A stretch of 64,000 nucleotides of DNA from Gemmatimonadaceae bacterium (GTDB lineage: Bacteria; Gemmatimonadota; Gemmatimonadetes; Gemmatimonadales; Gemmatimonadaceae). Below the pieces are notes generated by a model. That model was not told the DNA's origin and did no database searches. It saw only the letters and a list, made by a program, of their open reading frames with translations. This document shows positions 59,561-62,680 of this stretch, in pieces (the first letter of the stretch is position 1; each line of letters starts with the position of its first letter). A program made the translations under genes and the position numbers. The stretch is taken from positions 270,147-334,146 of the forward strand of contig JBBEBQ010000010.1 of NCBI GenBank assembly GCA_040882285.1. The letters run 5' to 3'.

Positions 59561-59619
59561 GCCATCCTATAGGTGTGCCCGAAGGCCTCCATTGCGCATT
59601 CCGCCGCACTAAACCATTA

Positions 59620-59635
59620 TTTAGGGTACACTAAA
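59620..59635. promoter_or_regulatory. DtxR/MntR-type operator-like dyad
   Basis: TTTAGGGTACACTAAA: the arms TTTAG and CTAAA pair around G-GTAC-A. A second CTAAA..TTTAG pair (59609-59624) overlaps it. The dyad ends 9 bases before the oxidase ATG, where a repressor would block transcription or translation. Similarity is to manganese/iron-responsive DtxR-family boxes; the regulator is not in the window. Confidence 0.55.
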
Positions 59636-59644
59636 ACAGGGATT

Positions 59645-60715
59645 ATGTCTGATCAGAACGACCGGGCGCCGGAAGGAAAGGACCTCGTCGCGCCCTTGAT
59701 GAGCCGGCGGCAGGCCGTGAAATGGGGGGCGCTGGGTACCGTCGGGCTGGCGGCGGCCGGGACCGCCTGCGTCCAGCGCGGAGGCCCGCTGGCCGCCGGC
59801 GACACCTTGAAAGGCGGACTGGCCCCCGGGCACGGCTCCCATCACGACATGATGGCGGTGGGGGAGCTCCGGCGGGATTCGTTCGACCCGACGGCTTTCC
59901 TCACTCGCTTCGATTACGGCCGCGAGTCGACTCTTCCATCTGGGCAGACTCTGCGCGAGTACGACATGGAAGCCACGGAATTCGAGCTCGAAGTCGTGCC
60001 GGGCGTGTTCTTCCCGGCGTGGGGCTACAACGGGCAGGTTCCCGGGCCGACGATCCGCTGCACCGAAGGGGACCGTCTCCGCGTCCACTTCACCAATTCC
60101 GGGACGCATCCGCACACGATCCATTTTCACGGCTTTCACCCGGCGAACATGGACGGCGCGTTCGAGGTCGTGGCGCCCGGCCGGAGCTACACGTACGAAT
60201 TCGACGCCGCCCCGTTCGGGCTGCACCTGTACCACTGCCACACCGTTCCGCTCAAGCGGCACATCCACAAGGGACTGTACGGCGCATTCATCATCGATCC
60301 CAAGGAAGGTCGCCCGCCCGCGCGCGAGCTGGTGATGGTGATGAACGCCTTCGATACGAACTTCGACGGAGAGAACGAGATTTACGCGGTCAACTCCGTC
60401 GCGTTTCACTATCAGAAGCATCCGATCGAGCTCCGGCTGGGCGAGCCGGTGCGCGCCTACGTGGTGAATCTCACCGAGTTCGACCCGATCAACTCCTTCC
60501 ATCTCCACGGGAACTTTTACCGGCTGTACCGGACCGGCACGAATCTCACGCACCACGAATTCACCGACAACGTGATGCTCTGCCAGGGCGAGCGCGCGAT
60601 TCTCGAGTTCACCTACGACCACGAGGGGCCGTTTCTCTTTCACGCCCATCAGAGCGAATTCGCCGAGCTGGGATGGACCGGGATGTTCGTGGTGCGGGGC
60701 CCGGCCGTTGGCTGA
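59645..60715 (+). CDS. Two-domain multicopper oxidase
   Basis: A 356-residue exported oxidase (Tat-like SRRQAVKWGALGTVG, then Ala-rich helix to CVQRGG, which may be lipidated). Copper motifs: HPHTIHFHGFHP (N-domain), HLYHCHTVPLKRHIH (type-1/type-3), NSFHLHGNFY, and FLFHAHQSEFAELGWTGMF at the C-terminus. It resembles the small, two-domain multicopper oxidases/nitrite-reductase-like proteins and might oxidise Fe(II), Mn(II) or Cu(I). ATG 59645 gives the Tat motif. It overlaps the ZIP gene by 8 bases. Confidence 0.88.
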   Translation: MSDQNDRAPEGKDLVAPLMSRRQAVKWGALGTVGLAAAGTACVQRGGPLAAGDTLKGGLAPGHGSHHDMMAVGELRRDSFDPTAFLTRFDYGRESTLPSGQTLREYDMEATEFELEVVPGVFFPAWGYNGQVPGPTIRCTEGDRLRVHFTNSGTHPHTIHFHGFHPANMDGAFEVVAPGRSYTYEFDAAPFGLHLYHCHTVPLKRHIHKGLYGAFIIDPKEGRPPARELVMVMNAFDTNFDGENEIYAVNSVAFHYQKHPIELRLGEPVRAYVVNLTEFDPINSFHLHGNFYRLYRTGTNLTHHEFTDNVMLCQGERAILEFTYDHEGPFLFHAHQSEFAELGWTGMFVVRGPAVG

Positions 60716-61895
60716 CGCCGCGGGGGTATCCCGCCCGGACCGCACGCGCACCTGGCTTGCCGCGCTGCTGCCGCTCGTGGCGCTGCTCGTTTTTCTCCTG
60801 CTGTTTCTGCGCTTCGGACCCGCCGGCGTATTCACCGGATCGTTTCCTCCGGTGGAGGAGCTCACCATCACGCGGGTGACGCTGCCGGATCGCGGCGTGC
60901 TCCGGGTGCACGCCGTGAATGGAGGGCCGGCGCCCGTCACGGTCGCGCAGGTGCTCGTGGACGACGCGTCGTGGGTGCACACGGTTGATGGATCGCGGAC
61001 CATCGGCCGGCTGGAGTCGCGCGAGATCACCATTCCGTATCCGTGGGTGGAGGGCGAGCCGGTCGTCGTGCGGCTGGTGACGAGCACCGGACTCACCTTC
61101 GACAAGGAGGTAGCGGTCGCGGTCCGCACGCCCGCGCCGGACGCGCGCTATCTCACGACCTTCGCGCTGCTCGGGCTGTACGCCGGCGTGGTGCCCGTGT
61201 TCATCGGGCTGCTCTGGTTTCCGTTCCTGCGAAATCTCTCGCAAAGATGGATAGAGTTCTTCCTGAGCTTGACCGCCGGCCTGCTCCTGTTCCTCGGCGT
61301 CGACGCGCTGGCCGAGGCCGTCGAGCTTTCCGCGCTGGTTCCCACGGCATTTCAGGGGCTCGGCCTGGTTCTCCTCGGGCTCGTCGGTACGCCGCTCGTG
61401 CTGGCCGCGGTCGGCCGCCGGCGAAGGGGCGGTGGCTCGGCCTCGCCCGTGTACGTCGCGATGCTCGTCGCCTTGGCCATCGGACTGCACAACCTGGGCG
61501 AGGGGCTTGCGATCGGAGCGGCGTACGCGAGCGGGGAGATCGCGCTTGGCAGCTTCCTCGTGATCGGATTTCTGCTGCACAACACAACCGAAGGTCTCGC
61601 CATCCTCGCGCCGCTGACAAAGAGCAGGGTGACGCTCGGGCTGCTCGCGGTGCTCGGTCTGCTCGCGGGCGTCCCCACGATCATCGGAGCATGGATCGGC
61701 GGATTTACCTACAGCCCGGGGTGGACCGCGCTGTTCTTCGCCATCGGCGCCGGCGCGATCGTACAGGTGCTGGTCGAGCTGGCGCGCCTCTTCCCGGGTG
61801 ACGAGAAGGGCAGCATCGCCGCTCCGCTCAACGTCACCGGCTTTCTCGCCGGCATGCTGATCATGTACCTCACCGGACTTCTGGTAACCGCCTGA
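60708..61895 (+). CDS. ZIP-family metal transporter with N-terminal extracytoplasmic domain
   Basis: A 395-residue protein: signal-anchor helix (about 17-37), a beta-sandwich domain outside the cytoplasm (about 45-140; ELTITRVTLPDRGVLRVHAV, SWVHTVDGS), then eight ZIP helices (about 145-395). The ZIP metal motifs are HNLGEGLAIG and HNTTEGLAIL. TTG start at 60708 overlaps the oxidase stop. Zinc, iron or manganese import is inferred from family. The N-terminal domain is not usual for ZIP proteins. Confidence 0.85.
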   Translation: MADAAGVSRPDRTRTWLAALLPLVALLVFLLLFLRFGPAGVFTGSFPPVEELTITRVTLPDRGVLRVHAVNGGPAPVTVAQVLVDDASWVHTVDGSRTIGRLESREITIPYPWVEGEPVVVRLVTSTGLTFDKEVAVAVRTPAPDARYLTTFALLGLYAGVVPVFIGLLWFPFLRNLSQRWIEFFLSLTAGLLLFLGVDALAEAVELSALVPTAFQGLGLVLLGLVGTPLVLAAVGRRRRGGGSASPVYVAMLVALAIGLHNLGEGLAIGAAYASGEIALGSFLVIGFLLHNTTEGLAILAPLTKSRVTLGLLAVLGLLAGVPTIIGAWIGGFTYSPGWTALFFAIGAGAIVQVLVELARLFPGDEKGSIAAPLNVTGFLAGMLIMYLTGLLVTA

Positions 61896-62680
61896 TGCGA
61901 CGGTTGCCGCTGCTCCTTTGTCTCCTGTTTCTCCCGTCCACCGCGGACTCGCAGGATCCGCCGCCCATCCGCGACAACAGCTTCCTCATAGAGGAGGCGT
62001 ACAACCAGGAGCCGGGCGTCGTACAACACATCCTGCTGTTCGCTCGCGACCGCGCGACGCGCGACTGGGAGCTTGGCTTCACGCAGGAGTGGCCGTTCCT
62101 GAGCCAGGATCATCAGCTGAGCTACTCCGTCCCGCTCGTGAGCACAGCCGGCGGCTCCGGCATCGGGGACGTCGCGCTGAACTACAGGTATCGCTGGCTC
62201 GCCCAAGCGCGCAGCGAGTCCGTCCTTCGGATCAGCGCGCTGCTTCCCACCGGCAGCGCCGAGCGTGGGAGGGGCGCGGGGGGAGCGGGCGTCGAGCTAA
62301 ACCTGCCCGTCTCACTGGAGATTGGCCGTACGCTGGCGGCGCACTGGAACGTGGGCGGATCGGTGATTCCATCCGCGCGCGCCGTGGACGGAACGCGGCG
62401 CGCGGCGAGCGAGCTGTTCGCCGGAGCCAGCCTGGTGTGGCTGCTGCATCCAATGCTGAACCTGCTCGCCGAATCGGTGTGGTCGCGAGCGGAAACGCCG
62501 GGCATCGGCGGAACGCGAACGTCAGAGACGTCGCTCACTCTTGTGCCCGCAGTCCGCGGCGCGATCAATCTCCGCTCGGGTGCGCAGATCGTCCCCGGCG
62601 CCGGCCTGACGATCGACGCGCGGGACGGAATGCGGGTATCTGGCCTGCTCCTGTACTTGAGCTTCGAGCACGGGTTCTGA
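61895..62680 (+). CDS. Outer-membrane beta-barrel transporter-like protein
   Basis: A 261-residue protein with a signal peptide (RRLPLLLCLLFLPSTADSQ) and repeated amphipathic strands (SYSVPLVSTAGG, DVALNYRYRWL, LRISALLPTG) ending in LSFEHGF, a C-terminal aromatic signature. It resembles MetA-pathway/transporter barrels annotated as phenol-degradation or OMP. The ATG shares a base with the ZIP stop (TGATG). With the oxidase and ZIP gene it forms a three-gene operon that links outer membrane, periplasm and inner membrane. Confidence 0.8.
   Translation: MRRLPLLLCLLFLPSTADSQDPPPIRDNSFLIEEAYNQEPGVVQHILLFARDRATRDWELGFTQEWPFLSQDHQLSYSVPLVSTAGGSGIGDVALNYRYRWLAQARSESVLRISALLPTGSAERGRGAGGAGVELNLPVSLEIGRTLAAHWNVGGSVIPSARAVDGTRRAASELFAGASLVWLLHPMLNLLAESVWSRAETPGIGGTRTSETSLTLVPAVRGAINLRSGAQIVPGAGLTIDARDGMRVSGLLLYLSFEHGF

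What the first reader, a model, noticed from the sequence alone, without database searches (positions are those of the whole stretch)
59620..62680. Multicopper oxidase, fused ZIP transporter and outer-membrane barrel behind a metalloregulator-like box
Three overlapping genes (overlaps of 8 and 1 bases) give an outer-membrane channel, a periplasmic oxidase and an inner-membrane ZIP transporter with an unusual N-terminal beta-sandwich. The dyad TTTAGGGTACACTAAA lies 9 bases before the first ATG. A coherent model is oxidation-linked metal uptake or detoxification (for example Fe(II)/Mn(II)/Cu(I)) controlled by a DtxR/MntR-type repressor. I do not know of a described system with this exact trio.
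Basis: partly seen in the sequence, partly recalled or inferred. Interest (0 to 1): 0.72.

Follow-up and report, generated by a model that had tools for sequence, protein, structure and literature searches.

The report
Manganese-regulated oxidase and metal transporter operon
A copper-containing oxidase and a metal importer are encoded side by side in many bacteria and some archaea, here with an outer-membrane channel, and the DNA switch in front of them is the one used for manganese uptake, so this looks like an undescribed way to take up manganese rather than the copper-handling system suggested for the pair before.

Summary
In detail: three overlapping genes (two-domain multicopper oxidase, ZIP transporter with an N-terminal beta-sandwich, outer-membrane barrel) lie behind TTTAGGGTACACTAAA. 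The oxidase-ZIP pair is an old, mobile unit: the oxidase directly precedes the ZIP in 92 of 93 testable loci, from Gemmatimonadota to Chloroflexota, Planctomycetota, Acidobacteriota, Actinomycetota, Alphaproteobacteria, Bacilli, haloarchaea and Nitrososphaeria. The dyad is an operator of the DtxR/MntR class. It recurs 20 times in 15.6 kb upstream of the oxidase and 7 times in 560 kb elsewhere, nearly all of those also before the operon. The window's genome has one other good copy, directly in front of mntH (NRAMP), usp and mntR; that mntR is its only DtxR-family gene and carries Mn-type ligands. Elsewhere a MntR-family gene often sits beside the pair, with the matching operator type. The barrel is in the operon in part of Gemmatimonadota; in other lineages a PF13557 barrel lies between the two genes or stands alone under the same operator. 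Best reading: a Mn(II) acquisition module, overlapping Fe(II), repressed by MntR. What the oxidase does is inferred only. The pair was noted in ammonia-oxidizing archaea and assigned to copper; I found no report of the MntR link or the trio.

The parts
59620..59635 (+). DtxR/MntR-class operator TTTAGGGTACACTAAA
   Evidence: Only perfect TTTAGN6CTAAA in the genome; the second site of the genome is in front of mntH-usp-mntR on another contig; conserved upstream of orthologues
59645..60715 (+). Two-domain multicopper oxidase, type B by its copper ligands, probably Tat-exported
   Evidence: Pfam; closest PDB sequences 7rab and 3gdc, E about 1e-115 and 1e-110; invariant copper ligands in 28 homologues
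59702..59719 (+). Twin-arginine motif SRRQAV of the MCO signal peptide
   Evidence: Read from the translation; RR kept in the homologues whose N terminus is in the alignment; tatA or tatA-tatC lie beside the pair on two Bacilli plasmids
60233..60241 (+). HCH (residues 197-199): type-1 Cys and two type-3 His of domain 1; domain 2 has HAH instead
   Evidence: Invariant columns H197 C198 H199 and H333, H335
60708..61895 (+). ZIP-family transporter with extra N-terminal TM helix and beta-sandwich
   Evidence: PF02535; BbZIP fold; AlphaFold pLDDT 87
60849..61121 (+). Beta-sandwich domain of the ZIP protein (residues 48-138), conserved in the family, no conserved His or Cys
   Evidence: weak fold match to archaellum FlaG and FlaF
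61895..62680 (+). Outer-membrane beta-barrel resembling the COG4313/PF13557 kind
   Evidence: Fold match 4rl8, TM-score about 0.64; PF13557 only at E=0.016, below cut-off; homologues in the operon or next to mntR in Gemmatimonadota and in L035, L039

Best explanation
The three genes are a manganese-acquisition operon repressed by a Mn-loaded (and perhaps Fe-loaded) MntR. When Mn is scarce MntR leaves the operator, and mntH and the MCO-ZIP-barrel operon are expressed together. The barrel lets divalent metal through the outer membrane, and the ZIP carries Mn(II) across the inner membrane beside NRAMP. The periplasmic MCO, exported folded by Tat and possibly docked to the ZIP beta-sandwich, oxidises a metal with O2. 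The version I think most likely is that it oxidises Fe(II) (or Cu(I)), which competes for, or is harmful through, an unselective ZIP, so that Mn(II) is what enters. Shown by computation: gene identities, operon structure, synteny, operator conservation, shared operator with mntH-mntR, Mn-type ligands of the regulator. Inferred: repression rather than activation, Mn as the carried ion, channel function of the barrel, substrate and purpose of the MCO, any MCO-ZIP complex.
For: MCO directly upstream of ZIP in 54/55, 23/23 and 15/15 loci of three sets. Operator: 20 hits in 15.6 kb upstream against 7 in 560 kb elsewhere, nearly all of the 7 upstream of the operon too. Own genome: its only DtxR-family gene lies in mntH-usp-mntR behind the second operator; the NRAMP matches MntH structures at E about 1e-116; Fur is a separate gene. 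Own MntR has Asp at the DtxR M10 position and Glu at the C102 position; changing DtxR at these two positions made it respond to Mn (PMC2628430). MntR-family gene in 27 of 59 loci, plus NRAMP in L002, L029, L053, and next to the pair on plasmids, three times annotated mntR. Where the regulator is the short MntR kind the box is TAGCN4GCTA instead. Same operator in front of ZnuA/TroA-type binding proteins and of stand-alone PF13557 barrels. ZIPs and the barrel MnoP are reported Mn importers elsewhere (PMC9334652).
Against: In other Gemmatimonadota the operator class also precedes feoB, and the closest-studied regulator of this build, DR2539, senses both Mn and Fe (PMC3327659), so iron is not excluded. 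Some plasmid copies sit in copper- or heavy-metal-resistance islands without an adjacent MntR, and the archaeal pair rose modestly under copper limitation (PMC7785015). No direct metal or transport data exist. A ZIP carries divalent ions, so oxidising its own cargo would not help uptake. No sigma-70-like promoter was found near the box, so its placement over a promoter is unproven.
Confidence: 0.62

Rival explanations
1. Copper module: the MCO oxidises Cu(I) to Cu(II), and the ZIP takes up, or the module detoxifies, copper, as proposed for MCO1 and its adjacent permease in ammonia-oxidizing archaea.
For: Published proposal and mild induction (log2 0.8-1.3) under Cu limitation (PMC7785015); copper genes near some plasmid copies; cupredoxin genes after ZIP in L018, L022, L024, L040, L047 and a plastocyanin/azurin-family gene in a haloarchaeon.
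Against: The adjacent regulators are DtxR/MntR-family, and the operator is shared with mntH and mntR. Copper-type regulators were rare among the annotated neighbours read: one metal-sensing repressor directly after zip in Shinella.
Confidence: 0.15
2. Iron module: Fe(II) uptake or Fe(II) oxidation under a dual Fe/Mn DtxR-type repressor, the MCO acting as ferroxidase.
For: The operator also precedes feoB and a TonB receptor in other genomes; DR2539-like regulators sense Fe(II) too.
Against: In the window's genus the operator marks mntH(-usp-mntR), not feoB; adjacent regulators have Asp or Asn and Glu or Asp at the two selectivity positions wherever both could be read reliably, never the DtxR pair Met and Cys; a separate Fur exists.
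Confidence: 0.15
3. Mn detoxification or Mn oxidation: MntR activates the operon in Mn excess, and the MCO oxidises Mn(II) outside or in the periplasm.
For: MntR can activate efflux genes in B. subtilis (cited in PMC9240420); Mn oxidation raised intracellular Mn in P. putida (PMC3798386).
Against: The box ends 9 bases before the start codon, a repressor's place; the operator is shared with the importer mntH; ZIPs are importers.
Confidence: 0.06

Closest known systems
MCO1 and adjacent ZIP permease of ammonia-oxidizing archaea (Nitrososphaera viennensis, PMC7785015)
   Same: Genome-linked two-domain MCO and ZIP permease; a Nitrososphaeria homologue of both is in hand (L059, MCO about 50% identical)
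   Different: Assigned to copper, no MntR link and no outer-membrane barrel described; that the N. viennensis pair itself is orthologous was not tested
Fet3-Ftr1 oxidase-permease of yeast
   Same: Multicopper oxidase paired with a metal permease
   Different: Fet3 has three domains and Ftr1 is not a ZIP; that system carries iron (own knowledge)
MntH and MnoP of Bradyrhizobium (reviewed in PMC9334652)
   Same: Outer-membrane channel used together with an inner-membrane importer for Mn
   Different: No oxidase, NRAMP instead of ZIP; relation of the barrels not tested
DR2539-mntH regulation in Deinococcus radiodurans (PMC3327659)
   Same: DtxR-family repressor with SH3-like domain, Lys at the MntR Glu11 position, acting on mntH through an inverted repeat
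   Different: No MCO-ZIP target reported there; Deinococcus sp. QL22 does carry the pair behind two such boxes
PDB 3gdc (Arthrobacter sp. FB24 MCO) and 7rab/7rac
   Same: Closest solved structures; 3gdc matches the MCO encoded in the mntR-mco-zip locus of FB24 plasmid 1
   Different: I found no paper giving either a function
BbZIP (5tsa)
   Same: Eight-TM ZIP core, HNxxEG motif in TM4
   Different: Extra N-terminal helix and beta-sandwich here; TM5 has HNxxEG instead of QDxxEG

Membership tests
Two-domain multicopper oxidase, type B | Two cupredoxin domains with Cu-oxidase signatures | tested here: met
   PF07732 and PF07731 above cut-off
Two-domain multicopper oxidase, type B | Type-1 copper in domain 1 only, eight His for the trinuclear centre | tested here: met
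   H157, C198, H206 (axial L211) in domain 1; H160, H162, H197, H199, H286, H288, H333, H335 invariant; HAH, no Cys, in domain 2 (site assignment by analogy with nitrite reductase, from my own knowledge)
Two-domain multicopper oxidase, type B | Homotrimer with the trinuclear site at the interfaces | not testable with these tools
   No complex prediction available
Copper nitrite reductase | TIGR02376 cut-off and loss of the trinuclear His set | tested here: not met
   99.7 bits against 296.3; all eight His present
CopA/CueO copper-resistance oxidases | Curated family cut-off | tested here: not met
   TIGR01480 88.6 against 479; CueO 54 against 525
ZIP transporters | PF02535 match, 8 TM helices, HNxxEG in TM4 | tested here: met
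   35.5 bits against 35.1; fold; invariant H261 N262 E265 G266
ZIP transporters | Metal transport activity | not testable with these tools
   No experiment
DtxR/MntR regulon | Dyad operator in front of the operon, conserved and shared with mntH or mntR | tested here: met
DtxR/MntR regulon | Metal-dependent binding of MntR to the site | not testable with these tools
   Needs a gel shift
COG4313/PF13557 outer-membrane channels | Pfam gathering score | tested here: not met
   15.7 bits against 22
COG4313/PF13557 outer-membrane channels | Barrel fold of 4rl8 | tested here: inconclusive
   E=4.4e-7, TM-score 0.64, but FapF and NanC score similarly
Fet3-Ftr1 oxidase-permease | FTR1-type permease | tested here: not met
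   Only PF02535 found in the permease

The most novel reading that the evidence does not exclude
MCO and ZIP form one oxidase-permease machine dedicated to manganese: the oxidase, docked on the ZIP beta-sandwich, changes the redox state of Mn itself (or of a Mn ligand) as an obligatory step of uptake, a manganese counterpart of Fet3-Ftr1 that spread across bacteria and archaea, partly on plasmids.
Probability: 0.13. Interest if true: 0.85.

Novelty: new variant of a known kind. Interest (0 to 1): 0.62.

Why it matters
An oxidase-transporter pair present in many phyla and on conjugative plasmids has had either no function or a copper function. The operator and regulator evidence moves it to manganese (and iron) supply, gives a likely role to solved structures without a known function (3gdc, 7rab), and asks a sharp question: why does a cell short of manganese make a multicopper oxidase next to its importer? 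Cultured laboratory strains carry the pair beside mntR, so it can be tested directly.

Tried and rejected
Reading the dyad as chance: rejected. Nitrite reductase, CopA and CueO: rejected by cut-offs and ligands. The trio as a fixed unit: rejected, the P0003 barrel is in the operon or adjacent only in part of Gemmatimonadota and two further loci. Other one-mismatch boxes in the own genome (C7, C6) are not in front of metal genes. A first upstream scan stopped with an error and was repeated. A search of archaeal relatives was not accepted. No paper in the library names 7rab. Many weak box hits had no metal gene next to them and are treated as noise. I did not manage to confirm from a paper the E. 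coli MntR consensus that I recall.

Full report
Observation. The MCO ATG is at 59645, the TTG of the ZIP gene overlaps the end of the MCO gene by 8 bases, and the barrel ATG overlaps the ZIP stop by 1. The dyad TTTAGGGTACACTAAA occupies 59620-59635. The best in-frame start for the MCO is this ATG and not the longer GTG at 59573, because genus homologues align from residue 1 and the Tat motif SRRQAV lies at residues 20-25.

The proteins. The MCO has two cupredoxin domains, and its closest solved relatives are 7rab and 3gdc. Across 28 homologues the ligands of one type-1 copper in domain 1 and the eight histidines of a trinuclear centre are invariant, while domain 2 has HAH in place of HCH. That is the type B layout of two-domain oxidases (assignment from my own knowledge). 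The type-1 axial position is Leu211 in the window protein. Scores for nitrite reductase, CopA and CueO are far below their cut-offs. The transporter core is a ZIP like BbZIP. In front of it a TM helix and a beta-sandwich are predicted with good confidence (mean pLDDT 87); the domain is conserved in the whole family, without conserved His or Cys, so a docking or folding role is likelier than metal binding. The barrel model (pLDDT 79.5) matches FapF and the COG4313 channel 4rl8.

Synteny. A scan of a collection of 84,980 species genomes with the ZIP gave 59 loci in Gemmatimonadota, Chloroflexota, Planctomycetota, Acidobacteriota, Actinomycetota, Cyanobacteria, Halomonas, Nitrososphaeria and others. 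Where sequence upstream of the ZIP is held, the MCO is upstream of it on the same strand in 54 of 55; in the window's order it is 23 of 23, and on plasmid records 15 of 15, the median gap being about zero. The few longer gaps are Planctomycetota with a barrel or a second zip between (L019, L022, L024, L028). 150 plasmid records carry a ZIP homologue, 74 of those plasmids conjugative. The P0003-type barrel follows ZIP only in part of Gemmatimonadota. In L035 and L039 it is next to mntR instead, and in Planctomycetota (L019, L022, L028) a PF13557 barrel stands between mco and zip.

Operator. In 51 loci with upstream sequence, the pattern DTTAGN6CTAAH occurs 20 times in 15.6 kb before the MCO and 7 times in 560 kb elsewhere. 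Of these 7, L029 and L031 precede an mntR-mco-zip operon, L002 lies just upstream of an mntR-NRAMP-mco-zip-barrel run, and L004, L005 and L021 lie just upstream of an mntR-mco-zip run. The consensus of 36 sites is TTTAG-GCTAGC-CTAAA.

Regulon in the window's genome. There is one perfect site, the window's own, and three with one mismatch. One of these, TTTAGGCACGCCTAAC at C8:121784, lies just upstream of an NRAMP gene, a universal-stress-protein gene and the only DtxR-family gene of the genome. The NRAMP is closest to MntH structures. The regulator has Asp and Glu at the positions of DtxR Met10 and Cys102; these two changes made DtxR Mn-responsive, though it also answered to Fe when cell iron was high (PMC2628430). 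It has Lys at the MntR Glu11 position, like DR2539, which represses mntH with Mn or Fe (PMC3327659). Fur is present as a separate gene.

Regulon elsewhere. A MntR-family gene lies within 27 of the 59 loci, and beside most order-level copies that reach far enough upstream. On plasmids, Sinorhizobium, Shinella and Pseudosulfitobacter have a divergent gene annotated mntR, and Rubrobacter, Deinococcus, Rhodococcus, Arthrobacter, Paenarthrobacter and Salinigranum a metal-dependent regulator. With the short MntR the intergenic box changes to TAGCN4GCTA, and in Acidobacteriota to TTTTGAN4TCAAAA. The same operator searched in 34 genomes also marks mntH or mntR (L138, L139, L140), feoB with or without a DtxR gene (L141, L143, L144, L152), ZnuA/TroA-type binding proteins (L170, L171), a TonB receptor (L149) and stand-alone PF13557 barrels (L142, L145, L150, L153, L154), in genomes whose MCO-ZIP operon lacks the barrel. 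More than half of the non-MCO sites examined had no metal gene beside them, or were not followed, and may be chance.

Interpretation. The strongest inference is regulatory: this is part of a Mn (and in some lineages Fe) supply regulon. A repressor-type site near the start codon shared with an importer argues for uptake in scarcity. ZIPs and outer-membrane channels are reported Mn importers in other bacteria (PMC9334652). The oxidase is the puzzle. It could remove Fe(II) or Cu(I) as competitors, act on Mn itself (Mn oxidation raised cell Mn in Pseudomonas putida, PMC3798386), or act on a ligand. I favour the first, without direct evidence. The published copper proposal for the archaeal pair rests on linkage and mild induction, and its authors call it unvalidated (PMC7785015).

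Novelty. The parts are known families, and the linkage was noted in ammonia-oxidizing archaea. Not found in the open papers searched: the MntR control, the breadth, the barrel in cis or in trans. The literature library lacks most subscription papers, so prior description is possible.

Noticed in passing
L035:3502-4899 (-) and L039:2370-3848 (-): mntR and the outer-membrane barrel form one uninterrupted reading frame, so that a cytoplasmic repressor runs straight into a signal peptide and barrel; fusion or internal start is unclear.
   Followed up: partly
L019:543-1469, L022:4877-5848, L028:4846-5859: In Planctomycetota a different PF13557 barrel stands between mco and zip.
   Followed up: partly
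L142, L145, L150, L153, L154: Stand-alone PF13557 barrels directly behind the same operator in genomes whose MCO-ZIP operon has no barrel: a candidate set of Mn/Fe-regulated outer-membrane channels in a family named after phenol degradation in Pfam.
   Followed up: partly
L180:2721-3851: The MCO in the mntR-mco-zip locus of Arthrobacter FB24 plasmid 1 matches the sequence of the solved chain 3gdc.
   Followed up: yes
L182 and L185: tatA, or tatA and tatC, lie next to the MCO-ZIP pair on Bacilli plasmids, fitting Tat export of the oxidase.
   Followed up: no
window 60708-61121 (ZIP residues 1-138): The N-terminal TM helix plus beta-sandwich resembles archaellum proteins FlaG and FlaF in fold search (E about 1e-3).
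   Followed up: no
L018, L022, L024, L040, L047, L021, L026, L181: A small cupredoxin or cytochrome c gene often follows zip, a possible electron partner.
   Followed up: no
L059:5005-6200: The Nitrososphaeria ZIP homologue is split by an apparent frame change.
   Followed up: no
L189, L190, L191: Three further multicopper-oxidase-like loci (E 1e-30 to 1e-7) in the window's genome, not examined.
   Followed up: no
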